From Sordaria brevicollis (taxonomy: Eukaryota; Ascomycota; Sordariomycetes; Sordariales; Sordariaceae): a stretch of 64,000 nucleotides of DNA. The DNA is taken from NCBI GenBank assembly GCA_033439795.1, contig JAUTDP010000007.1, positions 1,860,001-1,924,000 on the forward strand. Reading direction: 5' to 3'. Below, one piece after another: positions 3,426 through 51,188 of this stretch. Positions within the stretch are counted from its first letter, which is position 1, and each line of letters begins with the position of its first letter. The notes beneath the pieces are model-generated. The model was given only the letters and a program-made list of their open reading frames with translations. It searched no databases and was not told the origin of the DNA. The position numbers and the translations under genes were made by a program.

Positions 3426-3456
3426 TTTAAATATTATTAAAAAGATTTTATTTTTA

Positions 3457-3535: not shown

Positions 3536-3572
3536 TTAGAAAATAAAATTATTTTTTTTTATTATATACCTA

Positions 3573-3838: not shown

Positions 3839-6800
3839 TTGATAGGACCCACTTTCAAATGCCAAGCCCTAAGCGAGCTTGGCGGACAGGGATAGGGGGT
3901 CTTATTCAGCCAATTCCAACTCGAGAATTTTTTTCAACCAATTGCAGGTCGCGAAATCGCGGGTAAACCTCGTGGCTATTTACAGGGATTATTGACAGGG
4001 GGGTCACCGTATTATAGAAGAAGCTACGCTCAACGCTTTGCTCCGTGTTTTTTCAACACTTCTCAATGTTGAAGCTCCGCTTCAAATTACAACCTCTCAA
4101 TACAACTATTAATAAATTATTCAAAATTATAATAAAAAAAAAATAAAGGATTTACAAAACGAATAATTCATAAAACACCCGGGTAAAAAAATTATTATTT
4201 CTAATAAAAAGATCTAAGTTATATACGCAATCTTTTATTATTATAAGAAATTTATAAAAGAAAAAAAATAAATAATTATAAAGGCTTTTAAAAATAACGG
4301 TATCTCTATCCTCCTAAATAAATTAAAAAATTATATAATTAATATTAAAAAGATTAATAAAATTAAATTAAATTAAATAAATTAGGAGCGGGTCTTTAAT
4401 ATTATTAATAACGAACTTAGCGAGCTTAAAGCTATCTTTAAAAACGAAAACGATTTTTATCTTCAATATTATCTATAAAATAAAGAATTTGAATAAAAGA
4501 GGGAGAGAAGGAGGAAAATTATAGAAGAGGAATCTTTAAAAAAATATAACTATTATTTAAATAAAGATTTAAAAGTAATACTATATAATAAAGGGTTATT
4601 ATAATAAAATAATAAAGTAGAATTTATAATATAATTACGAACTTATAAACTTTAATAAAAATATTTATTAAAATAATAAGAATAATAATATAAATAATAA
4701 TTAAAATTCTTCATCACTCTTATTAAAATCCCTATTTTTAATATTATTACCCTATTCAATAAATTCGCCGCTATTAATTATATAGTCCTCCCCCTTTTCC
4801 TCCCCCTTTTTATCGTCCTAATAACGAAAAGCAATAGTAAAACCTTCTTACTAGAACTTCGTAATCTTTAAACGGTCGTTCTACTTCTCCTAATATTTAT
4901 TAAAATCCGCGATATAATAATATATTTTAATACTAAACCTAATAAAGTTCTCAATAATATTACGGCTTCGCTTATAAATCTAATTATAATAAATATACTT
5001 TTCGAAATTTATTAAATTCAATCCCTCCTTTATATTAGGGGATAATGGTATTCGAAAGACGACGAAATAATTATAACCTTCTTTAAATTAACTAAAATTG
5101 TAAAAATCATCGATTATATTTAGAAGGAAAAAAACGTTAATACTACCTTTATTTATTCTAAATACTTTATTTCCTTTATTTATTTATAAATAATAAAAAT
5201 ATACCTAATAAGGATTCTTAACTTCTCGAAATACAAAACTATAACGTTACGTTATACTATACTATAATTAAAGTTAGGAGATAGGGATAAATAAAATAGG
5301 GGTATTATTCTAAATGGAAGTATTAATTAGGGTATTTAAAAGAGGAAGAAAAATTATGCTAATCTCCCCAACAAAATAGAATAAATCCCCCCGAACACAA
5401 TATAGTAGAAACGGTTCAGATCGGTCAACTCCAACCAAATATAACGACCTCCGCCTTAACGTACATACATTTACTTATACAGAACGCGGGCTGAGTCTAC
5501 CACTACGCCACCCTCTTATGCTAGACTTCGGCACACTAAGTCCTCTAGGACAATTCTAGGTTTCCAGAGTTTTTACGGTATACAATCACATCCTTTTATT
5601 TCGACATGCAATATCGGGACGGTACACATCGATCAGAACACCGCAAGGAGGCTTTGGGACGTCTGCTTCGCGTGGTGATTACCGATAACGGTTACACAAC
5701 AACCTTTCCACTGCTCACGTTCACATCAATGCTGCAGCCGAGTTTAAAGGTGCGCCTACAGTATTGCATCCGTGCATTCTTACTCTTCCTCCCCAGTCTC
5801 TAGTTATCTCAGTTCGGATTTGGGTCCCGCTTAAAACACGACGTCCGAGTGACTTGCCGTGCATTGGTGCGCGACTTACATGGTTTCACAGATCTCTGGA
5901 TACTCGCCAAGCACCCTTGGCGGATGCAAGTTCGAGTGAGTGTCAGGCAAGGCATACCTGTATATTTTCACCGTATCCACCGTGTCTAGCCGGCTATCGT
6001 CATGATCACTCACAATGAAGACCAAGGCTGTAAACATTAACAGATATAGGGCCCAGCTTACCATAAAGAGCAATCGAGAGACCGGATCCAAAGCCTTAGA
6101 AACTATTTATGCCACGAGCCTGCGGCCATCGAGTAAAAAATTGTGCAAAACCACGAATTTGAGCCTTGTTAGGTCGACCATCTACAAGCCACACACCCTC
6201 CCATAAATGGCAAGCGCAGCCTTGAGCGATGTGTGCTCGATGGGCTGCCGAGATACATGCGAAGGACTGTTTCACATCACAAGGGTCGGCTACCTGGCTG
6301 CCTGGGCACGATATCGCTCCATCCGGCGGAAAAACCTGAAAAGATTGACTCATTCCTGCAAGGCGAATCAGAATCCGACGTAACGGCAGCACAGCTATTT
6401 TGGTCATATGCCCCGTTTTTGCGTGCTAAAGTCGGCTTTTCCTTGTTGATGAAGCATATGGATATCACGACCGGTCGGTCGAGGTGCATATCGAAAACCT
6501 ATCACGATGGTACGCGATTTGGAGAGGCCGATTAAAGGATGGATAACACTCCATGAACCCTGGATAATTCTCATCTCATTTCGAAACGGTCTAGAGCCCA
6601 GGGCGAAAGATGGAGAAAGATGGTGTGGGAGAAGCGGCGCGAGGCCTCTTGGAGGGGTGGCCTTGGGAAGCTCAACCCTTGACTTGTGATGGAGGCGAGG
6701 GGCCGAGCAGATGGTCGAAGCCAGGGAAACCGTGGAGCCAGGGAGCCAGGTGGTGTGGTGATGCATTGCATGTGGAGCGGCAGGGGTGGAAGCCATTAGC

Positions 6801-29071: not shown

Positions 29072-29929
29072 TTAGGGCCCGTTCGGTAGCGGACTGCTTA
29101 TTCCAATAGTATAGACTTCTGCCCGGTTTTTCCCTACTAAGACGAATTTCCGAGTTCGCTAAACTGGTTTTGGTAGTAATTATATAGAGAAAATAATTAA
29201 ACAATTCGGATTATTCGAAATCGACTCCGCTTTTTTATACCTTGCCAAGATAATTTAAAATTGGGCTACAATTTTCTATATTAAATATAGCGTCGTAAGA
29301 TTCTACCGTTTTTTTGGTATTAAATTACCGTTAACCGTATTATTAAAATCCGGGTAGTATAGCCTATTATAAATAGTTTTATTAATATTTCGTACGTAAT
29401 AATTTTATGCTTACCGACGACGTATTTAAATAACGACGGTATTATATATCCCTATTATTATAATTGCGTTGCCTTTATATACGTTACCTATATAATAATT
29501 TGTATTATATTTTAGAATAAAAAAAATCGAAATATTATATACCCGGGTAATCCTACCGCGGTTCGAAAGATTATAAATAGCTTTTATTATAAATTAATAA
29601 TGCAATTCAAAAATTATTTTAAAATAAATTGACTTACCTTTAATACTTTTATAATTTAATTAAAAAAATATATTAATTTGAAATTAATTCGCTATTAAAC
29701 GCTAAAGTAAAAATTTATAATTATTCTTTAAATATTCGGTACGGCCTAATTTTAAAAAGAAGTATCGTATAAATTTAATATTAATTTAAATTTAATTAAT
29801 ATTATTATATAAAATATATTAAATTAGTTGTATATTTTATATAAAATTATTATCCGCCTTTTAAAAAATAATTATTTAAATATTAAAATCGAATTAGACC
29901 TTTGGTTTAATACTTTTAACGGTTATATC

Positions 29930-30400
29930 GGCGTTATTAATAGGATATACGTAACCGTTTATATAAGGAAATTTTAATAATAATAGTAATGTAATAAGAA
30001 TAATAATATTATATAAAATATTTTTGCGGTAATAAAGTTCGATTATTTATTTTTATACGTATTAATAGGGGCGGAAGGATTAATTAACGACGTTGTATTA
30101 TATTTATAGGCGTTTAGTAAATTATTTCGGGTATTAGAGAACCGTTATTATATTATTAATACGGGGTTTAATATTCGGAAAGGAATTGTAATGCCTTTTA
30201 TTAACGTTAAATATTATTTAGAGGATTAGAGAAATAAGGGGAGGAAATTGAAGAATGCGAAAGAGTTATATAATTTATATTACGTTTATATCTATATTAT
30301 TATTGAATATATTTTTGGTATTATAAAGAGAATATAGAAGATTGTACGTATTATATTATTTAAATATAATATTAATTAATAAATTAAGATTATTTATATA
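29930..30400 (+). pseudogene. RIP-mutated Harbinger DDE transposase
   Basis: In one plus frame, DYLFLYVLIGAEG is followed by IND, FRVLENRYYIINTGF, KGIVMPFINVKYYL, KNAKELYN and IIIEYIFGIIKR. This is the order of the DDE_Tnp_4 nuclease domain. The second catalytic Asp now reads Asn (INTGF, from an expected D-A-G-F/Y) and several Gln/Trp codons have become stops. Only the central part is readable; the ends are approximate. Non-functional. Confidence 0.8.
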
Positions 30401-31178
30401 ATAACCGTATTATATAATTTTGTAATATTTTAACGACCGAGGATAGAGTTGATAGAAAAATAAAAAAGGGTAATAGAAGAAGGGAAATAGCGAGTAAGAA
30501 AGGTTCTAAGGGGGAAAACGAATTATTAAATCCGTTAATTTATTATAGTCGCTATTTAGAATTAATATTAAAAATTATTATGAAAAAGGAGGGAGAAAAG
30601 GGAAATAGGTCTAAATACCGAATTTAAATTTGAATTTGAATAAAAAAATCGAATAGAATAGAATATATAAATAAAAATCAGAATTATTAAAAAAAATTGA
30701 ATATATATAAAAAATATAGAATTATTAAATAATTCGAATATTTATTTGAAATTTAAAAAAAAATATCAGATAATAACGAATATATATATAAAAAATTAAA
30801 ATTATTAAATAATTCGAATATTTAATAAAAAGATATAAATCTAATAAATAAATTATTTTTTTTATTCTATTCTATTTATTTATTTATATATAATTACCTT
30901 ATTTCCTTATTATAACCGTTATATTTAATTATATTTATTAAATTCTCTTCTAAGTAATTTAATACTTTCATTATCTCCTACGTAATTATTTTACTAATAA
31001 ACCTCTTTTAAATATCTTCGATTACTTTTTATAATGCGCTAATTCCTAGGAGTTTTAATACCGCTAATAACGACGCCGCCGTTATTATTAATTAGTTTAA
31101 TATATCCCTATTATTACGGGTAACTTTCTTTTACGGGGTTCTTTTATTTTTAATTAAAACGAGCTCTTTAATAAGAAT

Positions 31179-31443
31179 TGTCACGGCGCTGGCGGACAGG
31201 GTCCCTGTCAGGGCCCTGTCTGGCGGACTGGTTGTCGCTTGGGCGGTCACCCTAATAGAGGTTGACCGCACCAGCGCACGTAACTGCGTACCACCTTCGT
31301 AGGTCGCCCGCGCCCAGGTATAAACCCTAGCGCGGGGCGCGCCCTTTATTCGTTTTCTTCTTTTCTTCTTCATTTTATAATTCTATAATAGACCTGGATT
31401 CAACGTATTAAATTTATCTCTTGTAACTACGTCGTTCGTAATA
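31179..31443 (+). repeat. 5' LTR of element A
   Basis: 265 bp beginning TGTCACGGCG. The end reads CGTAATA, expected CGTGACA before RIP. A TATA-box-like GGTATAAACC is at 31317-31326. It keeps more G and C than the internal region. Confidence 0.92.
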
Positions 31444-31449
31444 ATTATA

Positions 31450-33217
31450 AAATTATCTTTAATATATTAGGGAGGTATTTAAATATCTTAAATTTATTTA
31501 CCGATTAAAATAATTACAATATATACCCTCGTAATTAATTATAATAGCGCATACCCCCGACGAAAAGGCTACCGCAATTAAGACCGCTAAATTATCTATT
31601 ATCGAGAGCGTTTAAATAAACGAGGTTTAAAAGAAGAATATATCCAATAAATTCGTAATCGAATAAATTAAATTTAATATTATAGACGTATTTATTACTC
31701 CTAATATAATTATTTAGTAAAACGATACTTTTAAACGTTATTCGTTTAATAATATTATAATCGGCACCCTTAAAAAGAAATAAAATGCTTAATTACGTAA
31801 TATTAATAAATTTAATCTAAAAGATTATAATATTTTAAAGGATATAAATAAAATTATTATATTTTTTAATTAAGAAATTACTAATAAACTCGCCGACGTT
31901 CGTTATATATTTAATACGGAAAATTTACTCGGCTTTTTATATACGAAAATTAATGCAATTACGAAATATTAAACCTAATATAATAAAAGTTATTTAATTT
32001 TTACCTTTAAGGTTCTAATAATTATAGGCTAAGATTATTAAAAATAAAATAATAATAATATTTTATTAATAGATTTTAATACTTTTAAATCTATTATTAA
32101 GGACCCCGAAGGTATATATACTATTTTCGAAGAAATTAAATTGCGAATTATCTTAATTAAGGCTATTCTTTCTTAATAACGGGGATACTAAATTATCGCT
32201 ATTAATTTAAATATTAATTTAAAATAAATATACGAATATACCGCCAATTTATTAAAATATTAAAAGGGCGCCGAAATAGATAATAAACGCTTCTATAAGG
32301 ATTTACGCAAGGAATAAAATAAAAATATATTCCTAACGCGTTAATTATTAGAAGCCTACGGGAGTGAAAATCCTAACTTCGAATTAAACGATTACGAGAT
32401 TTTACGTTATAAAAACGTTACGTTACGCGAAAAGAATTATAAATTCTAAATTTAATTTATTACACTACGTTAAATTACTAATTATTTTAATAAAGGAATT
32501 TAAAATAATACCCCGTTTAACGATAAACCGAATAACAACCTATTTAATAATAAAAAGGTTTAAAATAATACCCCGTTTAATAACGGCTATACCAATAAAT
32601 AAAGTACCCCTTACGAATAAAAAAATAGTTTTTCGATTAAAAATTGCCTTTCTTATCCCTATTTCTTTATTAAATAGAACGAAACCCGTTGTAATTTAAT
32701 TAAAAAAGAGAAGGAATTTACTAAAGTTAAAAATAACTTAATAATTATAAAAGTCCAAACCGAAGAATTAGGAGGAGTAATAATTACCCGGGATAGCGAT
32801 ATAATTAATTTATATATTATAATTACTATTTTAATTAAAAAAAATATTAACCTCCGTAAAAAAAATACTAATCTCCGTAAAAAGAAAATCGCCTTTTTAA
32901 TTCCCGAGAATTTTAAACGCTACAATTATACCGACCGTACTAATTATAACGAGGATAATAACGAAAAAGGTTATTATAAAGAGACCCCTACTATTAATTT
33001 CTCTATAATTAATTATAAACGTTTATTATTTAAAGAAAAGGACCTACCCTATTTCTATAACGAAAAAGATAAGGATATTATTACCTTTAATATTTAATAT
33101 CGCTATATTTTTAATAAATTTAAATTAAACGCCAATTATTTCTCCAATAACGAAATTAAGAAAATATATATCGAAAATTATACCGCCGGTAAAATTACCT
33201 AAAACCTCGAGCCCTAC
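31450..33217 (+). pseudogene. Element A gag, 5' part (RIP-dead)
   Basis: Stop-riddled plus-strand remnant between the 5' LTR and the CTCGC target of element B. The frame ending EPYLA at 33217-33222 resumes after element B as DGLYNIKTFNKLL, showing one gag gene was split. Confidence 0.65.
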
Positions 33218-33222
33218 CTCGC

Positions 33223-33465
33223 TGTTAGATGGCATAAGCTTACAACGTGAAGTCCTTAATGGATTGGATGATTATGGAATACGATAATTGATTTAGGAGA
33301 GAGATCGAGTCGAGGCTCGACCTTTCGGCTATTTATTTATGTATGGGAGTTAATTTGGGTCGTCCTTAACCCGATTCTTACGATACTTGAAGGAGAAGGT
33401 AAATTTACGACTGATTTAATATCGAATCATAGCTCGTCCCGATTTATTCCCTCCTTCCCTTTATA
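33223..33465 (-). repeat. 3' LTR of element B
   Basis: 243 bp. Read on the plus strand it begins TGTTAGATGG and ends TTTATA (TTCACA in the partner). Confidence 0.92.
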
Positions 33466-36250
33466 ATTACCCCTTATATTAATTTATTACCGTCCCGGTA
33501 ATTCGTTTAAATATATACCCTTATTATTTATTTATTTAAATTCCGAATTTTATATTATTTATCCTTTGCGGGCCGATTTAATTATTTACTTCTTCGATAC
33601 CGTATTTAATAACCTAAGCGACAATTTCGTTAATATTATTGTATATATCGTTTTTATAAATTTCGAATTCTTAATTAGCGAACAGGCCATTAGTAATATA
33701 TATGAATATTTTACCGTTACGATTATAAATATCGCGGATATCCTACTTATTATTATTAATATTTTAGGTTTAAAGGCGGCTATTAATTATAATTATTTTA
33801 AAGCTAATTTAAGTATAAATTAAGTCGGCGTAGGAATATTATTTAATTAGGTTATATAATCTTTTAAGGGTATAGTCCTTTATTATATTCTAAATAGTTT
33901 AATAATATTTATCGGCCTATTTATAATTATTAAAATGTAAATAATTTATTAATATTAATTTGAACGCCTACTTTTACCTTTTAATACCGTCTTTAAAGTA
34001 ATTAATTTCTTTTTATTAACTTTTATTTTACTCTTCGAAGTATTTAATCCGTTTAATTAATTTATCGAACGCCTTTTAATTATAATTTAGGGTTGTATTT
34101 ATAATTAATTTAGGTAGGAATTAAATTTTAATACGACCGCGATTAAAAAGGATATATTATAGGGTCGAAATAATTCGGCTAATTATAATTATATTGGAAA
34201 GCTTTTTTATAATTAGAATAATACTTATATTAAAAGCCTTTTTACTACGAATAAAACGGTTATTAAAATCGATTATATTTATATCTAAATTTTAATTTAG
34301 TTTAAAATTCGGCGACGAATTTACTTCGGAAAACGAGTCTATAATTGAGGAGGATTCGAATTACTTAAAGGTCCTAAGGTTAAAATTGGAGATAGATTAT
34401 TTCTTTTTAGTTATACGATTGGTAGTAAAAATTTTAGCAAAACCGGTCGATTTGGTTGGGGTATTTTAAGTAGGTATAATAATTTAAATCGGAGGGGTAG
34501 TAAAATCTTTAAATTCGATATATCCGGTAATATTAAAAATATTAGGGATTTTAATTCTTAATATTATTAGGGTATTTAAAAGAATAATTTTATTAATTTA
34601 AGGAATTAAATTAAGTTTAATTATATCGATAAATTTATTAATAATACTATTAGGCGACGAATTATTAAAAACGATATTATACGGGATAGCGGGCTATTTA
34701 GTTAAAGCGATTTGTAATTTATTATTTAAAGGTAAATTTAGTTTTTCGAGCGTGCTAATTTAAGATTGTTTAATAGGGGTTAATCCTTCTATAGTAAATA
34801 TTAATTCTTTAAATTTAGTATAGTGTATATTAATTTAAATTCCTTTAAGTTCGGTTTCCGAATCGGTATTGGAAATAGTTTCGTCGAATTCGGCCGGGGC
34901 TATATTTTTTTTTATTTAATTTTTAAATTTATCGATATTCTCTTTATAAGCGTTTTATTTAGTTTAGAATTCGGAATTTTAGCGGGTGAAGTATTTTTAT
35001 ATAATAGCGAAAGCTTTATTATTTATATCCTTTTTAATAATAATATCGGTATTGAAATTGGCGTCGAATTAGTATATTTAAATGTATTTTTTTAAAATGA
35101 AATTTAAAAGAGGCTTAGCGTATTATTTATAATTTTTAAATATTTTAGCGTCCTATTTATATTAAATTGGTCTAAGGTTCGCTTTATATTAACGTACGTA
35201 GAAAGGTATTTTATAAATTTCTATACCGGTTTTTTTATTCTATTTATCCTATTTGTAAAAGGATTTAAATAATTTTATAATTTAATACGTTACGGTTATT
35301 ACGACTTAGGTAGCGATATCCGGCTTATAAAGTAAATTTTTTATAATTTTTATAGGGTAGGCTTTATCTTTAATCGCGCTTAGGAATTTAATAATTTTTT
35401 TATAATATTTTATTTACGAGATTTAAGAATTATTAATTATATAAATAATTAAGATTACTTCGGTTCGCTTTTTATCGTCGTTATAAAAGTTGCGAAAAAT
35501 TTTATTTTAATTAAATTATAAGCGTTTAAAAACGTTTGAATTTTAATTCGGTTTACCCAGAATATAATTAACCTAGCCCAAAACGCGTTAACTTTTTTAA
35601 TTTTATATTTTATAAATCGCTTTTATAATATTAGAGATAAGAAGGTTAAAAATAATAAGATTATTATTATATATATAAATAGTAGAGTAGCGTAAATATA
35701 TTAGTTTATTTTAATTCGGTATAATTAAATCGTTTACGGTAATTATTATAATAATTAATTTTAAATTATAGGTTTATTTTAATCGTAATTTAATTAAAGT
35801 ATTTAAAGATAAGAAAAAATTTGGCCGAAGGTTAATTTATATGCGTTAAATATTATAGGGCGGATTGTATCGCGGTTTATATATAGTAAATAATTAATAT
35901 TTAATTACTTTATCGGTTTAGGACGAATCGGATTTAAAGAGGGAAGGTACGTTTAATTTCCTTTTTAAGTAGTATATTATTTAAATGCTATAAATTAATA
36001 CGGCTAAGTCCGGTTCTTTAGGTTTCTTTAATTCGTTAAGTTAGATAGGGAGCCGCGTTTTATATTCTTTAATTAATTACCGGTTATTTTCTATAAAGCT
36101 TTTTTTTCTAATTATATTATAGGGTTTTTAAATATTCGATTCGTAGTTATAACTTTTCTATTTTACTTTATAATCGATATATAATCCGTTTTTTATTTAA
36201 ATTATTCGCCGTTTTAATAATTATTTTATTTTGTAAAAGTAGAATTAATT
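33466..36250. other. Element B 3' region of unknown content
   Basis: RIP-degraded sequence between the end of pol and the 3' LTR. Short open stretches on the plus strand (33566-33823 and 34823-35095) show no domain. It could be an extra gene of the element, an antisense gene or a further unrecognised insertion. Confidence 0.5.
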
Positions 36251-39200
36251 ATCGTTTCTTTCGATAAATATATAATTTAGCCTATTGTTCCCCTTTTTAC
36301 CGAATGGGTTTTCGCTTTTAGGGTATTTGCGAAGGTATATTAAGGAAATTATTTTATAAATCCTTTATATTTTCGGTATATCGAATTCGTAAGTTAAATC
36401 GTTAATTTTATATATTATTTTAAAAAGGCCGATTCGCTATTAACCGAATTTTTATAAAAGTTCGCCTATAGGGTTATACCCTTTATAAAGCCGGATTATT
36501 ATTTTATTTCCAATTTTAAAGGATAAAGGCCGGTATAATTTATTATATAGGAATTTATATTTTATAGCGGTCTAATTTAAGGCGTTATTAACTTTTTAGT
36601 TATATAATTTTCGTATTGCTTTAAAATTATAATTTTTTAAATTTTATAATTTAATAAGGTTTAAGGTAGTATTAGGTTTAAAATTGAATATTAATTTATT
36701 CGGGATTAAATTTAGTAAAGTAGATAGGGAGTTATTTATATTATATTAGAACGCTAGTAAAATATTAAGTTAAAATATATTGAAATTCTTAACGGTATAA
36801 TATTTAATAGTAAATTTTATTTTTTAATTTCTCTTTTCGTTTTTTCCGTTAATTTAGGAGTATTATACCGTAGTATATATTAATTTATAATTTAATTTAT
36901 TAAATATAGTTTTTTAAATTTTGGATAGGAATTTTGAATTTCAATTACTAATTATTATATAGAATAGGTTTTAATTATAAAATAATAGTATTATTACGAA
37001 TTTTTTTATTTAATTTTTCGTTAAATAAATTATCTTTTTTAAAATTAGAATAACTTTTTTATTAAAAGTGTAAACGATTATTATAAACGAATCGAAATTT
37101 TCTCTTCCTTATATCGTTAATACGTAGGGCTATTTAAGTAGGCCTATTATAAAATCGATATAGATTATATAGTATAGAATCGGTTTAGGGATTATAAGTT
37201 AAAATTAGCCGGGAATCGTTTTACGATTTATTTTTAATTTATTATATTTAGGGTAATAGGAGACGTATATCCTAAATTAGTATAATAGCCGTAAGATTGA
37301 TAAACCCTTTAATTTTTTCGCTATTTGGGATAGGCCGAAATAATATTTATTATTATAGGTTATTTTAAAAATCGATTTAAAGTAATTATATAGTATATAT
37401 AATCGAATTGCGCTATTATACGCTTTATAATATAGTAAATTATTTTTAAAGAATTAATATTTAAAATATTAATTTTTAGGGAGGTTATAGCGCGTGCTTT
37501 TTTCGGTATAAAGTTTTAATTTTTTTATAATTTAGGAATAATAAACGTCTTTTATATAGCCTTTAACGAAATCCGCTTTAATTTCGTCTATTATTTGGAT
37601 ATAAATTAAATATACGGAATTTTTCTATATATTATCCAATTTATTAATCTTTAGGTCGGGGTAAAGTGCTTTAAATAATAGCCGGGATAGGGTATTTAAA
37701 ATTATATTAATTTTGTTAAAGATATATTATATATTGAAATTGAATTGGGATAGGTAAATTAAAATTGTAATTAATTTTAGATTAAATTTAATTAAGTTTA
37801 TTATTTTTAAAGTAATTTAGTGGATAATATTAGCGGTTATTTTATAATTAGTAAAGATAATTATTAATTTATAGTATAATTAAATAATTTACTTTATTAT
37901 TTTATAAATTTATACGAAATAAACGATTTTAAATTCTATAAGTTAATACCGCTTTTTAACGTTCGAAAGCCGTTTATTATAAAATATAATCGGTTCGATA
38001 TCCGTAATAAAGAAAAATTTACCGTCTTAGGAGTTATTTTTTAAATAGAAAATAATTAGGCCGAAATTAAATTCGAATAATATATTAATTTTATAAAACG
38101 TTTAACGGTTTAAATAATAATAGAAAAGGATTTACTTTTTATAAAATTAGTTTTATAAAATTTTAAAGGTTTTTTTCTTTTATTAGGTAAGTTTAAAAGT
38201 AATTATTTTCGTAAATTTTTAACGGATAAGTTAGCTTTTATTTTTTAATATCCTCTTTTCCGTTTTAATTTACGTTATAAATATAATTTTATAGTCCTTA
38301 AACGGTTTTACCTTTTGGGTAAATTAAAGTACGAATTTTTTAAAAAAGTTATTAATACCGATATAGCGTTTAAAATTGGCTAAGTCAATAAGTATTTTAA
38401 TATTCCAAATCGCGGTAATTCAATTTTCGGTTATTGCTAAGCCGAATATTAATACTTTATAGTTTAGAAAATAAATTAATAAATAGGCTACGAATAATTT
38501 CTTCGTTACGATATTTAAATTAATTTTTTTAAATAATTTTAAAATTATTTTGATATAAATAAAGTATTCTTCAATTATATTATTAAAAATAATAATATTA
38601 TCGATATAAATTACTATAAAAGTTTAATAGGGATAAAGTCGCTTATTTATAAATTTTTAAGCGTAAAACGGTAAATTTTTATAACCTATTAAAGCAACGT
38701 TTAACCTTTCTAAATTTTTAGGGCTAATTAAGATTATTCTATTACAATAGTAAGGATAAACGGAAAATTGGTAGAAAAAGGCTAAATTATCGAAAATATT
38801 AATAAAATACTTACTTTATATACGGGCGATAATAGAATTTTAAATCGGTAGAGGGTAGGAATCGTTAATAATAATTTTATTAATAGGCCGTTAATTAATA
38901 ATAACCTTCGTTTTACGTTTATTATTTACCGTCTTTTAAATTACGAAATAAAGGTATTTAAAAGGGGTAGGACGCTTTATTTATTTTAATTTTCCGTTTT
39001 TATATATTTTATTAAGCGTTTCGTTTAAAATTTTTATATCCTTTAAATTAAATTAATATAAATGAAATACGACCTTTTTATAATATTAATTATCGATTAA
39101 ATCGATATATAATATTTCGTTTTCGTTAATAACAATAATACCGGTACCGTTATAGACGTTATATTTATTAATTACTATTTTAATTTTTTCGGTAAAAGCC

Positions 39201-40500
39201 GGGTCCTTTATATAAATTGTAATATTAAAATTAGATTTAATTTCGGGGATATTCTCGATTTTGCCGATTCTTAAGGACGGAATTTTAATTTAAGTTTATT
39301 TTATTAAACGGAGCGAGTCGTCCTTTATTAAGGGTTTATTTTCGGGAATTAATTTAATAATTTCTTTTACCGCTCTATTAATTTTTAAATCCGGTATAAA
39401 AGTTATTCTTTTTAATTCCTTTATATAGTTAAACTCCTTTCCGATTTCTTTATTTACGACGGTTAATATAATTTAGGCTTAATCGAAAGAAATCGATTTA
39501 TACTTATCGAAATCAATATCTTAAATTATTTTAAATCGTTAATTTTTATAAAATCGCATCGGGGTTGGGTTCGGGTTTATTATTAAAATAAATTTAATTA
39601 TACTTACGTCGAGGATATAGTTATAGATATATTTATTCTAAAATATAAATATAAAATCCTTTAATATATTAATTAGTATAGTAGTATTAAAATAAATATA
39701 ATTTATAGGTATTCGTATTTTATAATATAATAGAATTATTACATTATAATTAATTATAACCTTATAGGTAATTGGTTTTATTCTATTATAGGTTTTAATA
39801 ATTATATTGTAATACGAATTGATTTTTATTATATTAGATTTAAAATCGATTAAAACTGCATTCAAGACGGTCTAAAACGTATTAAATAAAAATTTGGCCG
39901 GGAGTTTATTAATAATTTAAACTTTAATATAGAATTTAATTCGAATTATTTTACTATCTATTATTTCTATTATAAATAGGTCGAAATTTATTTACTATTT
40001 TAGAGTTATATTACCTCTTATAATATTGAAATTCTTTTCGATTAAATTATTAAATTCGACGTTAATATTTCTTCGAAGGAAATTTCGGTCGATAAAAATA
40101 TTAGAATAGTTTATATCGATATAAATTATATATTCGGGGCCGAATTCGGTAAATTGGATTATAATTTAAAGGAAGGTATATAATACTCTTTCGACTTTAA
40201 AGGGTATTAATTTAGCGTTAATTATAAAGAGGTTAAGGCCGATTAATTTAAGGCTTATTATTATTATAATAGCGGCGTTCGGTTAGGTAAATTATAATTC
40301 TAATTTAAAGCTATAATAATCGTTATTTAAAGCGTATTAAAATATACGGCGATAAATTTTAAATCGCTAACGGTATTTTTTATATATAATTTATTTCAAA
40401 TTACCGAAAAATATAAAGTAAATTAAAAATTAATTATATTTACTAATTATATAATAAAATGCGGACGTAATATTAGCGTCGGTAAATATAAAGGCTTCCT
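36250..40500 (-). pseudogene. Element B pol (RIP-dead)
   Basis: On the minus strand the reverse transcriptase core reads GYKNLPFYA...KRLYP...TFIVIYIDNIIIFNN at about 38.55-38.70 kb; the second Asp of YxDD now reads Asn. RNase H should follow. The integrase zinc-binding and core relics lie at about 37.4-36.8 kb and the integrase C-terminal domain at about 36.56-36.30 kb. Many stops. The protease and 5' limit are not resolved, so the upper boundary is approximate. Confidence 0.75.
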
Positions 40501-43500
40501 TTTTATTAAAATTGGAATAGTAATCGTATTTTTTAAAATTTTAAGTACGAAGTTAATAGATTTCTTCGTCGGATTCGTTATTTATATTAATAATAATTTT
40601 ACGCTCTTTATCGGTTAAAAAGGTATTATTAGAACGGCGTACGCCGGGTTTAATTTAATAGCGGTATAAATATTTATATAAATAGCGAATTTAAAATAAT
40701 TTCTTATTCCCTTCTTTTTAAAGTTTGCCCTTATTATAGGCCTTCTAATAGTCGGATTCGTTAGCGAAATCCTACTTCTATTTGCCCTAATGATTAAAAC
40801 GGCGGCTTAAATTGCGAAGCGGGTAATTTGGGCTGCGGTTATATATAATAATATTTATAGGGGTTAGGGCGGCCTATTAATAATTTAATTCGGCCGTAAT
40901 ATAGTAAGAATTATTAGTAAATAAATATTAGGTTTTAAAGGCAGGTAGAATTAAGCGAATATTTTCGAATAAAATAAATTTTCTTTTTAATTTGGTTTTT
41001 ATAAAATGAATATTAAAATCGGTATTATAGCCGTTGAAATTATTAATTAAATTAAATCGATAAGTTTTAATTTTCTATTTAACGTATTTAATAAAATTAT
41101 TAATTAATATATTATAGGACGGTTCCTAGATTAATTAACGTAAGTTAAGGTAAATAGTAAGTTAAATGCGGGAATTAATATTAAAAGCGTCGTTATTTTT
41201 AAATTTATAATTTTAATATAGGATTTGGAAAGTTGTAATACGGATCGGTTTATTAATAATATAATCTTCGTACGAATATTTAATAAAATCGAATTTAATT
41301 AGGATTTAGCTTTTCGTCGGTTTAAAACAGACGATTAAAACGGCTTTTTAAGTATTTAAGTTAATTTTATAGGCTATTCGCTATTGGGGATTTAATTAGG
41401 CTATTTATTAAATTTTAATTACTTTATAAAATAATTCGTTAAAATTGAAGTATAAATATTCGATATAGGCCGGGGTTATAATATTCGCTATAATAAATTT
41501 AAAGAATAAATAAACCGATTTATAATAAATATCCCTTTTATATATATAGTATTTATAATTTTAATATTTAAATTTAAATATATCGGGGTAAAAAAACCCG
41601 GTTTATTTAATTTTCTATCCCTAAAAATTTCCGTTAGGATTATCGCGGTTAAAAATATTATTAAAATTAATAGCGAATTTAATAGCGATTTAATTTAAGG
41701 TTTAAACGTTATTATTAGCGGTCGCTATTATTATAATTTAAATTATAATAATAAATTCGGTTCTACTGAATTAGTTTTATTAATTTCTATTTTAATTTTA
41801 ACCGGTAAATTAATTTTAAAATTAATCCTCCCTTTAATTTTAACCTTAAATTTAATTACGTTTTTGGGATTAAGAATTATTGCTATTTTAATTGTAGGGG
41901 TTTATTTAAGACGTAGGGTTAAAAGATTTTGCTCTAGAGTCGAAATTTGAATTAGGTTATTTTATATTTTATTTAAATATAGTTTAAATAGTATTAATTA
42001 AAGGTTTTATAAATTTAGGGATTTAGTTAATTATTTTCGATAAAAAAATTATTAGGCCTAATAACGGTTTTTAAAGTACTTAAAACCGTAGTTAATTTAA
42101 TTTAATTAAAACGTTTAGTAAGTTTTAAATTAATTATTAGTAATTATTATAGGAAATTTTTAACGTTATATCTGGTAAATAATTATTAAGAAAATGTATC
42201 GAATTAATTAAAGGAAGAAAAGGATTTCGAAAGGGGTTATAAAATCGGAATAGAATTTTCTCCCTTCTTTTATCGGTTTAATAAAGTAAAAACGGGGTAA
42301 AAGTAATTTTATATTAATTTTTCGTTCTTTCCTCTAAATTCCTTATTACGTTGGTTTTTTCTTTACCTTTATTTTTCGATTTATTAAACTCTATTTTATA
42401 AAATTTAAATTAGGAATGAGAATTATTTTAAAGGAAAAGTAGTTTTATAACGGATTGGTCTCGGTATTAAATAATATTTTCGTTGTCTATAACCGATTCT
42501 ACGGTTATTCGAAAGTTTAAACCGGTATTTTCCGTCGGTTTATTTTTAAAATTACCTTCTTAATAGAATTTTTTAATTAAATTTAGGCCGAACGAATTAA
42601 TAATTTAATCCTCTTAGAATAAAGGAAAATTTAATAGTCGGGGTTTTCGTTATATATAATTATTAATTTAAACCGGTAAAGGAGGGGATAGGGTATCGAT
42701 TTATATAGGAGACGGGTTATTTTAAATTGGCTATAGTTTATAATAAACTTTAAAATCTTTTACGTAATTTTAAGAATCTTTTATTAATATAAAAAATTAA
42801 ATAAATACCCCCTATAAATTTAAATTAAATTATATTGTAATTAATATCTTAGGGGCGTTTAGGAATTTTTTATTATTTATATTAATTCGAAGTAGGGTAT
42901 ATATTAATAATAATTATAATATATAGGAGGGTTCCCGAAATAGGTATATTAGGGATTGAATTTTTTATATTATTATTTAACGTATTTCGTTTTAATATTT
43001 AGCTTATAATTTAAAAGAGCCGGGTAATTATAGATATAAAATATCCTCTAACTTGGGGATTATATTAAAAACGAATTTAAATTCGATATATTAATATTTT
43101 TTTACTTCGGGGCGGATTTTAGTATTTAAAGTATTAATAGCGGTAATAATTTAGTTACGCTTCTCCAATTCGGGTTGGGCTTTAAATTCGGGTCCGGTAT
43201 TAATTTTATAATTAATTACAGTAAAATAACGTCGAATTCTCGTAAAAGACGAAATTAAATACCTTTCCGATTCGAATTAAGCGTTAATTTAAAAATTAGT
43301 ATTAATAAAAGGATAACGACCTTTTGTAAGAAATGAAGTCTAATACCTTTCCGATTCGGTTCGGGCTTTAATTTAATAATTAATATTAATAAAAGAACGT
43401 CAAATTTTTAAAGGAAACGAAGTTCGATATTTTTTTAATTGAATTTTAATTACTTATAGTAAATTAAGTACGGATTTATCGTTTAAAGCGGTATAGGGGT

Positions 43501-44311
43501 CGTTTTTATTAGTTTTTAAACCGGTATTTATTTCGCTTTTAAGAGCGGAGACGTTTACTTTATTTAAGGAAGGTAACGGATTATAAAAGTAATATAAACC
43601 GGAATTTAATATAAGTAAGTATTATAAGTTTATAATAATTATATATTTCGTATATAATATTTAGTTTTATACGTATTCGGGGTCCGAAATATTATAATAA
43701 AAAAAAATAGGGTAGTTATTAAATTTATAATTAAATTCTATATTATTATTATTATTTTAGGAAAATAAATCGTTTTAATTATCGAATTAATTAAAAGAAT
43801 TTTAAATATTGGGCGTAAATAAGACGAATTATTCGATTTGTAAAAATATAATAGGGGATTAATTATTTTTAATAAATTTAATAATTTATTTAAAAAGGCT
43901 TTTAAGGATATAATAATCTAAACCTTAATAAATTAGATACGGGGGTAATACTATTAATCGTTTTATAATTTGAATTAACGTTAATAATATTAATTTAATA
44001 TTTGAAAATTACGGTAAGGAGTCGATAACCGCTTTAAATCGTCTTTTTGAGCTATTTAACGCGATTCGGTATTATAACGTTACCGGATTTGCGTAAACGA
44101 AGTCCAATACGTACTAAAAGTTCCGTTAGATTATAGGGTTTTTAAAGTTGAATATAAGTATTAATAATTAATAAAATAGGATGAAAAATAATAACGACGC
44201 GAAGCGGGGTTAAATTAAAGCGTTAAAAGATTCTTTAGGTTAAATATCCGTTACGAAGTTTCTAAAAGAAAGGAAGAATATTAATAATTAAAGTTATTAT
44301 TAAGTATTATT
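40500..44311 (-). pseudogene. Element B gag region (RIP-dead)
   Basis: By position upstream of pol this should be gag and leader. Motifs are too degraded for me to identify; I could not confirm a zinc knuckle. Confidence 0.4.
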
Positions 44312-44554
44312 TATTAAATAATATAAATTTATAACGTAAAGTCTTTAATAGATTGGATGATTATAGAATACGATAATTGATTTAAGAGAGAAATCGAATC
44401 GAGGTTCGACCTTTCGGCTATCTATTTATGTATGGGAGTCAATTCGGGTCGTCCCTGACCCGATTCTTATAATACCTGAAGGAGAAGGTGAGTCTACGAC
44501 CGACTTAATGTCGAGTCGTGGCTCGTTCCGACCTGTTCCCTCCTTCCCTTCACA
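44312..44554 (-). repeat. 5' LTR of element B
   Basis: 243 bp, aligned without gaps to 33223-33465. Its 3'-flanking CTCGC matches the left target duplication. This copy retains more unmutated sites over its last 150 bp than the other. Confidence 0.92.
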
Positions 44555-44559
44555 CTCGC

Positions 44560-45260
44560 CGACGGCCTTTATAATATTAAAACCTTTAATAAATTATTAG
44601 CCTATTTACGTACCGAATATTATAATTATAATCGTAAGGAAAAAGTTATTTACGAATTTAATAATTTAAAATTCGAAATGAATAGTAATTTTTAAAAATT
44701 CTATAATAAATTCGTTTACTTAGCCGGAAAATATAATCGCCCGCCCAATTTATAGAAATAAGAATTCAATTGGAAACTCCCTAGTAATATTTAGAACGCA
44801 CTTCTTTAAAAATATAAATAGGAAAATATAACTTTTAATTAATACGCTTTAATAATTAAGAAGGTAATTGAAATTAATTAATATATCTTCTATAATAATA
44901 AAGCTAAAAAGGATAATAAAAATAAAAATAAAAATATTTCCTCTTCTTCGAATTTATTTAATAAAGTTAAAGGCTTTAACGATTCTAATAAGAATTTTAA
45001 TAATATTATTAATAATAATATTAATACTGGTAGCGGTAATTGAAGTAATTCCCGTTACGCCCCTAATATAATTCGTAAAGAGGTTCGTAAACTATTCGAA
45101 AAAAATAAGTATTTCGTATATAAAGAGATTAAATATTATTTCCGTAATTATTTTAACCGCCGTAGCGGTAACCCTAACCGTATTAACGAATTCGTCGATT
45201 ATTATAGTCGTAAAAATAAAAAGGATAATAAACCGGCCGATAATAAGGCGGAAAATTAAT
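44560..45260 (+). pseudogene. Element A gag, 3' part with mutated zinc knuckle
   Basis: Plus-strand frame continuing from 33217. Near 45110-45157 it reads YFVYKEIKYYFRNYF, which fits a CCHC knuckle with the Cys codons now Tyr and the His codon now Tyr, as single G-to-A or C-to-T changes would give. Non-functional. Confidence 0.75.
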
Positions 45261-48200
45261 TACCTTAGGAATATTAAACTCCCTCCTAAGGATTAAATTA
45301 ATAAGTATTTATTTTAGAAAAAACCTAAAAGAAATACTATTAGAAAGTATAAAAGTAAATAAAGGTTTTTTAAAGGACTATTTAGGTAGACCCGTATTAA
45401 TTATATTTTATACTATAGTAGGTAATAATAAAAAAATTTTATTTACGAATAATACGCTTATTAATTCGGGAATAAACGGTAATATCTTTATAAATAAAGA
45501 CTTTACTAATAATATAATAAAATAAAGAATAGAAAGGCTATATAATTTCTAACCTTACGTAGTAAAAGGGTATACTAGATAATATAATAAAATAATCGAT
45601 TAATATTTACGAGGTATTATCGAAATATAAAGATAGAAATTCGAAAAAGAAATAATAATTATTATTAATTCGGAATATAATATTATTTTAAATAAATATT
45701 AATTAAGAAAATATAAAATCTTAATCGATATTATAAATACGAAACTTATTTTTAATAAAACAATTATTATTTTCTTAACCTTTAATAAACGGATTACCGA
45801 ATTCGAAAACCTCGTTAAAACCGTAATATTATTTCCCTTAGCGAAATATAATCGACCGATCGAATTCTTCGAAGAATTAAAGGAATAATTAACCTAATAT
45901 AGAAAAAACGAAAATTTAATAAAAATAGAACGTTAATTATTAAATTAATACGCCCTATAATAGGAAGAAGAGGACGCAATACCTACGTAATAAGAATATA
46001 TTGAAATATTTAAAGCCGAACGAAAAAATAATCCCTATTAAGGCGAAGATACGCAAAGTCGATACCGGTTAAAAAAAAACGGCGTAAATTAATATAAATA
46101 TTATAACGACCTTATAGTAATCAGTACCGACGCCTTTCTTATATTCGTTAAATAAGAATATATAAAAATAATTAACTTTTATAAATTTAATCGATTTATT
46201 AACGACTATAAAAAATAGGCCCTTATTAAAAATAAAGTAGAATTACGCAAACGAATTAAAAAAGAAATCTTTAAATACGTTTATAAATATTTAAATATAT
46301 TTAATAAAAAGGAGTTTAATACCCTACCGAATTACCGCGCTAATAATTATAAAATCGATTTAACGGACGGAATAAAGCCCGAAGATTTTAAGTATAGCCT
46401 ATTATATAAAATATCGGTCGATAAGTTAAAGGCCTATTAGAAATATATAAATAAAGCGTTAATTAAAGGCTTTATTAAAAGTAATTTTATACCCTAGGCT
46501 ACGCCTATCTTCTTCGTACTTAAGGCTAACGGTAGATTGAGGTTCTATATAGACTATTAGAAATTTAACGTTATTATAAAGAAAGATAAATACCCTCTTC
46601 CCTTAATTAATAAAATTATTACTAAGATTAACTAAACGAAGATTTTCTCGAAGATCGATATTAAATAAGCCTTCTATTAAATCCGTATACACCCCGACGA
46701 CGAAAAATTTACAATATTCCGAATAAAATACAATACGTATAAATATAAAATCTTACCCTTTAAATTAATTAACGGACTATTAACGTTTTAATAATATATT
46801 AACGAAATATTAATAGGTTATTTTAACGACTTTTATAGTACGTATATCGATAATATCTTTATCTTTTCGAATAATTTAGAAGAATATAAAATTTATATTA
46901 AGAAGGTATTAATTAGGTTAAAAATAGCGGGATTATAAACGGACTTAAATAAATGCGAATTCTACGTCGAGAAAACTAAATTCTTAGGGTTTATTATCGG
47001 GACTAATAACGTATTCATTAATCCTCAAAAGATTGTAATTATAAAAGACTAATAAATTCTAATAAATATACAAAGAGTATAATCCTTCTTAAAGTTTTAT
47101 AACTTCTACCGGTACTTCGTTAAAAATTATAGCCGGATTATTAAATTATTAATAATAATAACGAAAAAAGGAGAAGTTTTTAATTAAAATAAGGATTACT
47201 AAATTACCTTCGAAGAATTTAAAAGACGATTATTATTAATACTTATCCTAATATATTTTAAATATAAACGGCTAATATAAATAGAAACGGACGTTTTTAA
47301 CAAAATAGTAACGGGAATTTTATTTTAATTAATCGACGACGAATAATATCTAATTACCTTCTATTCTAAAATTATATATAAAGTAGAATATAATTATTTA
47401 ATTTATAATAAAGAATTAATAATAATCGTTAAGGTTTTATAGTATTAAAAGGCTGAATTTATTAATTTATAAGAACCCTTTTTAATTTTTACGGATAATA
47501 AAGCGTTTAAATAATTTAATATTAAACGATTATTAAATTTATAATAAACGGGCTAAATAGAATTCCTATTCCAATATTATTTTATTATTTTATACTAATT
47601 AAAGAAGGAGAACGGGGCGGCCGACGCTTTATTAAAGAAGGTAGAAGATTTAAAGAATTAGAAAATTAAATAGGAAGCCTATTATATTCTCTAAATTTTT
47701 AAAAATTTAAAAGATAACCGTATAGTATAACCCAACGATATAATTAATAATATTAATGCCGTTCTTATATTAATTTCGTCTTTAGGAACCTTTATAGAAA
47801 TTAACCTAGAAATCGCGGAAAATAATCGAAAAGAACGCTTAGAAGGATACTTTTTAATAAACCGTCTTATATTTAAAAATAAAATTTACCTAAATTTAAA
47901 AATTTATCGAAATATAATTAAAAGGGGGGAGAACGGGTATCGACTTATTATTAATAAAATTCTTACTTATTTCGATAAATTTATCGTACTACCTAATATT
48001 TTAAAAGCCTAAATTATTTACGAATTATATGCAAAAATTATTACCGCTTATTTAAACCGAAATAAAATTAAACGCCTAATTTCTATATAATATTAGTAAT
48101 TAAGGATAACCAATAATATTAACCGCTTTATTACCAATTATATAATATATTATACTTCGAAAGTTCTTTATAATAAAATACTTAGTAAATTAGAACTTAT

Positions 48201-49400
48201 TTTAACGGCTTAGCGTATTTAATAAAACCTAATCGTAAACTTCAAATTAATATTTAAGGATAAATAAAGATTCGATAACGTATTCGTAATAGTAAATCGA
48301 TTAAATAAAATATTATAAATTATCCCTTACTTTATAATAATAATAATTAAAAACGCGGCCCGTATATATTACGAAGGCCTTTACTATATTTACAAATTAT
48401 TAAACGAAGTTATTTCGGATAAGGGCCCCTAATTTATATCGGATTTTATAAACGAATTAATTAAAATTTTAAATATTAAATAGAAATTAGCCTCCTTAGG
48501 ATATAATTAAATTGCGGAGTAGGCCGAAATTATAAATAAATACTTCGATTAGTATTTTCGTCCCTTCGTTAATTATTTCTAAAATAATTAATTAAAAACG
48601 ATCTTAATAATAAATATAATATAAATAGGAATACCGTATAATAATTTAAATAGGATATAACCGTACGAAATATTAAAAAGATTCCTAATACCCGGAATTT
48701 TAAATTAAGAGGCTCGAATTAATTTCAATAGCGTATAATTAACGACTAAAGAGAAATTTAATTAGGAAGACGTATAAAGCTTAATAAATCGAATCTAAAA
48801 ATATATAAATAAAGTAAAAAAATTTATTACTAAAATTCAAGAGTAAATAATTAAATAATTAAATAAATATTAACGTATTTTAAATTTCGGATCCAATAAT
48901 AGAATATTTATTATTAAACGGAACGAATTTATAAACCGGCTAAATTATAAATTCGATTTTCCTTTAACGAACTAATATTTTAAAATTAAAAAAAAGTATA
49001 ATTATTTATTTAAATTAAAAATATTAAAGGGTTAGAAAGGAATAGATATCTTTTATACTAATAAGTTTCGGAAATATCCTAATAATTTATTACCCGGTTA
49101 AAAACTAAAAGAACTAATAAAGGAATATATAAAAAACGATATTAAATAAGAGGTAAAGGAAATTTTAACTTTTTAGGTATACTTTAATAAATTCTAATAC
49201 CGAATAAATTAAAAAGGATACAACCCGGACCCGAAGTTTTATAATATTAAGAATTTTAAAAATTTATTTAAACTCTTAAAAATATATTACGAAATATACC
49301 CTAAATACCCGGGGCCGCTTATATATTTAGAAGAATAATTATAGAAGGCTAAGGCGGAAGAGTTCGATAAAAATTATTTAAAGGATAACGTCCCTTTAAG
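45261..49400 (+). pseudogene. Element A pol (RIP-dead): PR-RT-RNaseH-IN-chromodomain
   Basis: Relics in Ty3/Gypsy order: protease LINSGINGN (about 45.45 kb, Asp now Asn); reverse transcriptase from DYRKFNVI-type sequence through KYPLPLINKI, IRIHPDDEKFTIFRIKYNTY and TYIDNIFIFSNNLEEYK (46.54-46.90 kb); RNase H (FYSKIIYKVEYNYLIYNKEL, about 47.36-47.43 kb); integrase core with VIVNRLNKI and EVISDKGP (about 48.28-48.45 kb); chromodomain-like tail KGYNPDPKFYNIKNFKN ending KYPGPLIYLE (about 49.2-49.34 kb). Frequent TAG/TAA replace Gln and Trp codons. Confidence 0.85.
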
Positions 49401-49507
49401 GAAGGGTATAAAGAAATTAAAGAGGGCAATAGGCGCTAGGAAATAAGGGACCTACTTTATATATAATAATAATTTTAATATTTCGAAGATTCGGGGCGAA
49501 TTTTTTT

Positions 49508-49522
49508 CGAAGGGGGGGGTAG
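49508..49522 (+). other. Polypurine tract of element A
   Basis: CGAAGGGGGGGGTAG directly upstream of the 3' LTR, the plus-strand priming site of LTR retrotransposons. Confidence 0.75.
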
Positions 49523-49787
49523 TATTACGGCGTTAGCGGATAGGGTCCCTATTAGGGCCTTATTTAGCGGACTAGTTATCGCTTAGACGGTTACCCTAAT
49601 AGAGGTTGACCGTACTAGCGCACGTGATTACGTGCCACCTTCATAGGTCGTCCGCGCTTAAATATAAACTTTAGCGCGGGGCGCGCCCTTTATTCGTTTT
49701 CTTCTTTTCTTCTTTATCTTGTAATTCTACAATAGACCTAGATTTAACGTATTAAACTTATCTTTCGTAATTACGTCGCTCGTGATA
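49523..49787 (+). repeat. 3' LTR of element A
   Basis: 265 bp beginning TATTACGGCG (TGTCACGGCG in the partner) and ending CGTGATA, followed by AGAAT. All differences from the 5' LTR that I checked are transitions. Confidence 0.92.
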
Positions 49788-49792
49788 AGAAT

Positions 49793-50980
49793 AAGAATAC
49801 GGTCCGGGTTAATTTCGCGAACGAATTTTTACGTAAGAATTTCGCGAATCTTCCTCTTAAAAGTAAATTTATTTTATCCTTTATTATTATTATTATTATT
49901 ATTATTATTTCTACTATTTTTATTATTAAAATCCTTTTCTTTATTAGAATTGTTATTACCCGAATTATTATTAACGTCCTCCTCCCCGGTAATATCTTCC
50001 TTATTTCGGTCTTCTTCTCCGCTTTTATTTCCTATTTTACGAATATAATAACCGGTAGGGTATTCTTTTATAAAAATATCCTTATAAACTTTCTAATCGT
50101 TTAGCGGGGTAATATAAAGCTAGTAATAATTTTTACGCTTAGTATTATAACGAGTAAAAAATTTATCCCAAATTTCTTTAAAAATAATTAGAATATCGGT
50201 CGCCCAATTATACCTTATATTAAATATTATTATTAATTTCTTTTAAATAATATAATAATTATATTTAATATCCTACTTCGATTTAATCGCGTTAATAGTT
50301 TATAAATAATACGGCTACTTCTCCTTCGCCCTCTTAAATATATATTCCTAAATTTTATTATACTTTTTTACCTTACCGGATTTGAAATATCCCTTTCTTT
50401 TATATTTACCGAATTATTTTATTATTTAATTAATTATTTTACGGTTATAAATAATATATTTAAATAGGGTAGAAGAAATATTAATCGATTGCGATTAAAT
50501 AGCCCGTTTACGTTTAATCCTTATAGTATTTTAAGTAATTTATTGCAATTAGGATTAAAATTAAATCTAAATCTAATTTTAAATATATTACGGCTAATTC
50601 TATTAAATATATTCCAATTAATTATTCTATTAAGTATATTCTAATTAATTATTCTATTAAATATATTTTAATTAATTATTTAATTATTAAGTATATTCTA
50701 ATTAATTAGTTTATTAGGTAGGAGGAGGATTCGATTAAGTAGTTTAATTAATCTAATTCTAAATTTAAATTTCGAGAAGTTAATTCTCGAAAGGTAAAGT
50801 CTCGTTAATAATTATATCGTCGTCATCCGTAATAGAAGTATAAAGGTAGTCGTCAATAGAGAGGTTCCGATTATTAGCGCTAATCGAAGATAAATTAATA
50901 AACTCCTCGATTAAACCTTAATCTCTATCGTTATTTATATTATTGGTTTTGGCGGGCAAAAATACTAGGAATATAATTAC
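49793..50980 (-). pseudogene. Harbinger second ORF relic, possible Myb/SANT-like protein
   Basis: Minus-strand remnant in the right part of the Harbinger element. It starts with an acidic stretch (ISANNRNLSIDDYLYTSITD at about 50.9-50.8 kb) and later reads ATDILIIFKEIWDKFFTRYN (about 50.2-50.1 kb). PIF/Harbinger elements usually carry such a second DNA-binding protein gene. Family assignment is an inference from position. Confidence 0.4.
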
Positions 50981-51188
50981 GATATTAAAAACCAAGCTAT
51001 TAATTTTATTACGTATCTAAATCGAAGGCGGTGAGCCGGATTATACAAAGCTATACCCAAAACGTTCAAATCTAGAAAGTGGACCTCGTATATACTATAT
51101 CGATTAGTGGCCTCCACTTTGGGCGACCAAGAATTCACAGAAGTCTATACTGCTGGGAGCAAGCAGTCCGCTACCGAACGGGCCCTTA

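What the first reader, a model, noticed from the sequence alone, without database searches (positions are those of the whole stretch)
29072..51188. Three-level nested transposon with all target duplications readable
Seen directly: a Harbinger-type element (TTA duplication) contains a Gypsy element (AGAAT duplication), whose gag contains an antisense Gypsy element (CTCGC duplication). Paired LTRs have identical lengths (265/265 and 243/243), and excision in silico restores a contiguous gag frame. The order of insertion is therefore fixed: Harbinger first, A second, B third.
Basis: partly seen in the sequence, partly recalled or inferred. Interest (0 to 1): 0.75.

Follow-up and report, generated by a model that had tools for sequence, protein, structure and literature searches.

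The report
Three nested transposons scarred by RIP
Three jumping elements sit one inside another in a Neurospora-like fungus; nests like this are common, but the scars left by the fungus's repeat-killing mutation system spare each newcomer's outermost ends, which gives a way to tell whether the surrounding DNA was attacked before the newcomer landed.

Summary
The nested structure is real. A TTA-flanked PIF/Harbinger-type element (29075-51185) holds LTR element A (31179-49787, TSD AGAAT), which holds LTR element B (33223-44554, TSD CTCGC). All three duplications are exact. Exact empty sites exist in 12 of 12 other Harbinger copies examined (for A) and 20 of 20 other A copies examined (for B). 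Nested transposons are ordinary.

The LTR pairs here are 84% identical, by 81 transitions, 0 transversions and 0 gaps, so LTR divergence cannot date them. In 25 of 25 LTR pairs (17 A, 8 B) the outer end of each LTR is less mutated than the same sequence in the inner position: RIP fades over roughly the last 50-150 bp of a repeat. At 45 of 46 junctions in RIPed host DNA (1 tie) the newcomer's outer 50 bp keep more targets (58% overall) than the host's adjacent 50 bp (6%), so hosts were mostly RIPed before insertion. At this locus that inference is weaker: one host flank is itself partly spared. Harbinger edges lie in clean DNA (25 of 25 classifiable), LTR-element edges rarely do (3 of 54).

The parts
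29072..29074 (.). TSD TTA, left copy, of the Harbinger-type element
   Evidence: sequence read
51186..51188 (.). TSD TTA, right copy, of the Harbinger-type element
29075..51185 (+). PIF/Harbinger-type DNA transposon (3497 nt of its own in two arms, 29075-31178 and 49793-51185), RIPed
   Evidence: TIR and TSD; related copies; RIP indices
30014..30418 (+). degraded DDE_Tnp_4 transposase stretch (20.2 bits, under the 24.8 cut-off)
   Evidence: six sister copies over the cut-off
31174..31178 (.). TSD AGAAT, left copy, of A
49788..49792 (.). TSD AGAAT, right copy, of A
31179..31443 (+). 5' LTR of A; outer (left) end nearly free of RIP
49523..49787 (+). 3' LTR of A; outer (right) end less mutated than the same part of the left LTR, but only slightly (7 against 5 sites beyond position 175)
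46519..46998 (+). reverse transcriptase stretch of A with 7 in-frame stops
47206..47544 (+). RNase H stretch of A (PF17919, PF17917)
33218..33222 (.). TSD CTCGC, left copy, of B
44555..44559 (.). TSD CTCGC, right copy, of B
33223..33465 (-). LTR of B, left in the window (3' LTR if B is antisense); outer end spared by RIP
44312..44554 (-). LTR of B, right in the window (5' LTR if B is antisense); outer end spared by RIP
38306..38881 (-). weak RT-like stretch of B, collinear with the RT of A (tblastn E 0.21)
36323..36445 (-). very weak integrase C-terminal (SH3_Tf2-1, E 0.17, under cut-off) match in B

Best explanation
A PIF/Harbinger-type DNA transposon landed in ordinary GC-rich DNA of a Neurospora-like fungus; LTR retrotransposon A landed in it, and LTR retrotransposon B landed in A (order shown). 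RIP, the pre-meiotic C-to-T mutation of duplicated DNA, then mutated all three (RIP as the cause is inferred from the mutation signature). RIP acts over the homologous tract but fades within roughly 50-150 bp of where the homology ends, so each inserted LTR element keeps less-mutated outer tips (shown in 25 of 25 LTR pairs; the reason, loss of homology at the junction, is inferred). Host repeats next to the newcomers are usually mutated right up to the junction, so most hosts were already RIPed when the newcomer landed (inferred from the asymmetry). The likely history here is insert, RIP, insert, RIP, insert, RIP, with the B-in-A step least certain.
For: TSDs, LTRs and TIRs exact; empty sites 12 of 12 and 20 of 20. 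Interiors GC 0.22-0.27, CpA o/e 0.08-0.25 against 0.98-1.16 in the flanks. LTR differences: 920 transitions, 17 transversions (15 of them in the one pair L045) in 6428 aligned positions over 25 pairs. Outer ends less mutated than the same sequence inside in 25 of 25 pairs at both ends (by position). Junction asymmetry at 46 edges in RIPed hosts: inside 229 of 395 targets kept, outside 26 of 411; inside higher at 45, tie at 1. Harbinger edges clean in 25 of 25 classifiable cases. Host close to N. crassa: Dis3 98% identical over 95%, a genus in which RIP is established knowledge.
Against: At this locus A just left of B is the least mutated of 21 copies over 25 and over 100 nt, and Harbinger just left of A is second lowest of 13 over 50 nt; the two right flanks are unremarkable. 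So some host-side sparing exists here and A may have been only partly RIPed when B landed. The right end of A's 3' LTR keeps only 1 of 9 targets in its outer 50 bp. One edge (L040_L) shows no asymmetry. PMC10294615 (passages) reports more new RIP mutations at the distal ends of LTR elements in Zymoseptoria tritici, the opposite trend.
Confidence: 0.78

Rival explanations
1. All three insertions came first, and a later period of RIP mutated the whole stack at once.
For: All layers are about equally saturated (CpA o/e 0.08-0.25); A left of B is partly spared on the host side, as this rival predicts.
Against: It predicts sparing on both sides of each junction. At 46 edges in RIPed hosts the host side keeps only 26 of 411 targets in the 50 bp next to the junction; the two right host flanks here show none.
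Confidence: 0.15
2. The outer LTR tips are spared for another reason, such as gene conversion with un-RIPed copies, bound proteins, or different chromatin at the junction.
For: Edge chromatin and conversion were not measured here.
Against: The same LTR sequence is mutated at the inner position and spared at the outer one, in mirror image at the two ends, in 25 of 25 pairs. Sequence-bound factors cannot do that. Conversion would have to stop at the same distance each time. Sparing is seen next to RIPed, mixed and clean hosts alike.
Confidence: 0.15
3. The nest is an assembly artefact.
For: Reads were not available here.
Against: All junctions carry exact TSDs and complete element ends; other copies give exact empty sites; the 53 Mb genome is in 27 contigs.
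Confidence: 0.02

Closest known systems
Nested transposons in RIPed AT-rich regions of filamentous ascomycetes (e.g. PMC9970103, passages seen)
   Same: LTR elements mostly inside RIP-affected, gene-poor DNA; nesting; no new kind of element needed.
   Different: Here the target duplications, the empty sites and the RIP profile at each junction are read out for one nest and for sibling copies.
RIP in Neurospora (PMC4858203: passages and section 11; PMC11969663: passages)
   Same: C-to-T transitions confined to shared homology with little outside; [quoted passage not shown]
   Different: Here the fade is seen at natural transposon ends with the second LTR as a sequence-matched control. CpT is hit often too (419 CpA, 296 CpT, 115 CpG, 90 CpC).
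RIP along LTR elements in Zymoseptoria tritici crosses (PMC10294615, passages)
   Same: Position-resolved RIP along transposons; no leakage into flanks.
   Different: New mutations peak at LTR-element ends there; standing sequence is spared at the ends here. Both could hold if the tips are where unmutated targets remain (my inference, untested).

Membership tests
PIF/Harbinger DNA transposon | 3-nt target site duplication | tested here: met
   TTA/TTA here. As read, 12 of 13 copies have a matching 3-nt pair; L017 does not.
PIF/Harbinger DNA transposon | TWA target preference (recalled) | tested here: inconclusive
   TTA or TAA in 6 of 13 copies; the others are TTG/CAA, GAA, TCA or unmatched.
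PIF/Harbinger DNA transposon | DDE_Tnp_4 (PF13359) transposase | tested here: met
   Over the cut-off in six sister copies; 20.2 bits, under the cut-off of 24.8, in the window copy.
PIF/Harbinger DNA transposon | Second Myb/SANT-like protein (recalled) | tested here: not met
   No Pfam match at E 0.1 in six frames of the right arm or the plus frames of the left arm (minus frames of the left arm were not searched). The sequence is heavily RIPed, so absence is weak evidence.
Ty3/Gypsy LTR retrotransposon (A) | LTRs with TG...CA ends and a 5-nt TSD | tested here: met
   265-nt LTRs, TG start on the left; the CA ends read TA in both LTRs, as C-to-T would leave them; AGAAT twice.
Ty3/Gypsy LTR retrotransposon (A) | RT (RVT_1) followed by RNase H and integrase | tested here: inconclusive
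   RVT_1 then RNase H found; no integrase match.
Ty3/Gypsy LTR retrotransposon (B) | RVT_1-type RT and downstream integrase | tested here: inconclusive
   No Pfam match at E 0.1 in six frames; RT-like stretch at tblastn E 0.21; SH3_Tf2-1 at E 0.17.
Repeat-induced point mutation | C-to-T transitions in repeats, CpA first, single-copy DNA spared | tested here: met
Repeat-induced point mutation | Occurs before meiosis and needs RID or DIM-2 | not testable with these tools
   Needs crosses; host genes for RID and DIM-2 were not searched for.

The most novel reading that the evidence does not exclude
Paired LTRs are a built-in, sequence-matched control showing that RIP in nature fades over the last 50-150 bp of a homologous tract. 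The mismatch between a newcomer's spared tip and the fully mutated host beside it is then a general relative clock for nested insertions that needs no molecular rate. With Harbinger edges always in clean DNA and LTR-element edges nearly always in RIPed DNA, a RIPed DNA transposon would nucleate each new AT-rich island, onto which retrotransposons then home.
Probability: 0.4. Interest if true: 0.62.

Novelty: new member of a known kind. Interest (0 to 1): 0.45.

Why it matters
A three-layer nest is common. What matters is the RIP record. It warns that LTR identity cannot date insertions in RIP-active fungi: 920 of 937 substitutions over 25 LTR pairs are transitions. It gives a natural, sequence-matched measurement of how RIP behaves at the end of a homologous tract, which bears on how homology is recognised. 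It also offers a rate-free way to order insertion and RIP, and a testable model in which a DNA transposon seeds islands that retrotransposons then occupy.

Tried and rejected
One search was a script that gave 0 copies, which I put down to invalid BLAST settings; one search repeats it with other settings.

Considered and rejected: LTR divergence as age (nearly only transitions); RIP leaking outward (the 3 clean-host LTR-element edges keep 0.58 and 0.62 at 0-25 and 25-50 bp outside, and Harbinger flanks stay clean); strand-biased RIP as the cause of the GC skew at 34-44 kb (CpA and TpG are both depleted).

Rows dropped or chosen before counts: A copies were chosen mostly for uninterrupted LTR-to-gag spacing; of the 20 fetched, 4 had only one LTR found (L033, L037, L040, L046) and are not in the pair count, and the window makes 17 pairs. 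L045 has a gapped, transversion-rich LTR pair and an unmatched TSD but was kept. Of 54 LTR-element edges, 3 in clean and 5 in mixed hosts are not in the 46-edge count. One of 26 Harbinger edges was too short to classify. L032 and other distant Harbinger relatives were not used. In one search the right end of L016 was taken at the inner of its two terminal copies and that of L017 is one base short.

Full report
WHAT IS THERE. The window is C25:1860001-1924000 of a 53 Mb genome in 27 contigs. Between 29075 and 51185 lies a Harbinger-type element with TTA duplications. Inside it is LTR element A (265-nt LTRs, AGAAT), and inside A is LTR element B (243-nt LTRs, CTCGC). All ends and duplications were read and are exact. 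Without B and one TSD copy, A is 7272 nt, which fits the 16 other fetched copies with two LTRs (7255-7279 nt). B is 11332 nt, and the LTR hits of three other pairs (C12 twice, C23) have exactly the same spacing of 11089 nt.

EMPTY SITES. In 12 of 12 other Harbinger copies examined, the two sequences flanking A meet with a 5-nt overlap; in 20 of 20 other A copies examined, the two sequences flanking B do the same. These are exact empty sites, so the insertion order Harbinger, A, B is fixed. The A copies were picked mostly because their spacing looked uninterrupted, so the 20 of 20 says that empty sites are common, not how common.

WHAT THE ELEMENTS ARE. Harbinger: PF13359 transposase remnants with stops, over the cut-off in six sister copies and under it here. 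A: RVT_1 at 46519-46998 with 7 stops, then RNase H. B: no Pfam match at E 0.1 in six frames, a weak collinear RT-like stretch on the minus strand and a very weak integrase C-terminal match. The frames examined hold 5.7-15.7 stops per 100 codons.

RIP. The interiors have GC 0.22-0.27 and CpA o/e 0.08-0.25, against 0.49-0.51 and 0.98-1.16 in the flanks. The two LTR pairs are 84.2% and 84.0% identical, by 42 and 39 transitions with no transversion or gap. Over all 25 pairs examined there are 920 transitions, 17 transversions and 24 gap columns in 6428 aligned positions; 15 of the transversions lie in one pair, L045. The mutated C stands before A in 419, T in 296, G in 115 and C in 90 cases. LTR age estimates are therefore void here.

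THE EDGE EFFECT. Two LTRs are taken to be identical when an element lands (established knowledge of reverse transcription), so differences arose afterwards. In the first 90 nt of the LTR the inner (right) copy is more mutated in 25 of 25 pairs; in the last 90 nt the inner (left) copy is more mutated in 25 of 25 (two-sided binomial p 6e-8). By position, A 1-20 has 0 left-mutated against 71 right-mutated sites and A 221-240 has 50 against 5 (17 pairs). B 1-20 has 0 against 44 and B 201-220 has 25 against 2 (8 pairs). The change-over comes near position 160-180 of 265 in A and 120-160 of 243 in B. Sequence alone cannot explain this, because the same sequence behaves oppositely at its two positions; distance from the end of the homologous tract can. 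In the window itself the effect is clear at A's left end and both ends of B, and slight at A's right end. Harbinger tips show a gradient too (share of targets kept 0.60, 0.42, 0.39, 0.28, 0.20, 0.11 from the tip inward to 300-500 bp; 24 edges), without the internal control.

THE JUNCTION CLOCK. Of 54 outer edges of A and B, 46 lie in RIPed host DNA, 3 in clean and 5 in mixed DNA. At the 46, the newcomer's outer 50 bp keep 229 of 395 CA/TG sites (of CA+TG+TA) and the host's adjacent 50 bp keep 26 of 411; inside exceeds outside at 45 and ties at 1. If a host had first been RIPed after the insertion, its homology would also have ended at the junction and its edge should have been spared. Mostly it is not, so hosts were mostly RIPed beforehand. 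The two TSD copies are identical in 14 of 17 A pairs and 7 of 8 B pairs, which fits a target that was already in its present state.

AGAINST IT AT THIS LOCUS. Compared with other copies at the same sites, A just left of B is the least mutated of 21 copies over 25 nt (2 of 13 sites) and over 100 nt; Harbinger just left of A is second lowest of 13 over 50 nt; the two right flanks are unremarkable. So for B-in-A the claim that the host was fully RIPed first is weaker than the genome-wide one; A may have been only partly RIPed when B landed.

WHERE ELEMENTS LAND. Harbinger edges are in clean DNA in 25 of 25 classifiable cases, LTR elements in 3 of 54 (Fisher p 1e-17). At least one other Harbinger copy (C22:3766889) carries a B element. 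The suggestion is that a RIPed Harbinger copy seeds an AT-rich patch onto which the LTR elements home.

LITERATURE. PMC4858203 (passages and section 11) says mutations are confined to shared homology with few outside, and notes a paucity in the first ~130 bp of one partial-homology construct. PMC10294615 (passages) reports more new RIP mutations in the distal windows of LTR elements in Z. tritici crosses. This goes against simple edge sparing unless tips hold the remaining targets (my inference). In the passages I saw of PMC11969663, PMC10787394, PMC12543289, PMC9970103 and PMC6180176, outer/inner LTR asymmetry is not described. The ten paper searches listed no title or abstract on it; searches found no paper. 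The library lacks most subscription papers, including, as I recall, key Neurospora work on how RIP mutations are partitioned, so it may well be in print.

VERDICT. The nest is an ordinary kind of object. The RIP record at the LTR tips is the part worth a specialist's attention.

Noticed in passing
L016 3775-3880 (C25 about 1014402-1014508): One Harbinger copy has its terminal inverted repeat end twice in tandem, about 58 nt apart; TCA stands at the left end and beyond the outer right copy.
   Followed up: partly
window 33466-44311: B is unusually long for a Gypsy element: about 2.8 kb lie between the weak integrase match and the 3' LTR and about 5 kb before the RT-like stretch, with no Pfam match at E 0.1 in six frames.
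   Followed up: partly
C22:3766889-3798505 (L026-L029): A second Harbinger copy spans 31.6 kb and carries a B element and further inserted DNA; another copy at C22:2363636-2375973 is split too.
   Followed up: partly
window 1-6000: Another AT-rich stretch (GC 0.31, RIP-like indices, CpA o/e 0.53) in the same window, only partly RIPed by these measures.
   Followed up: no
window 34000-44000: Marked GC skew (about +0.13 to +0.29 in 2-kb steps) across B, opposite in sense to its coding strand; CpA and TpG are both depleted, so it is probably not strand-biased RIP.
   Followed up: no
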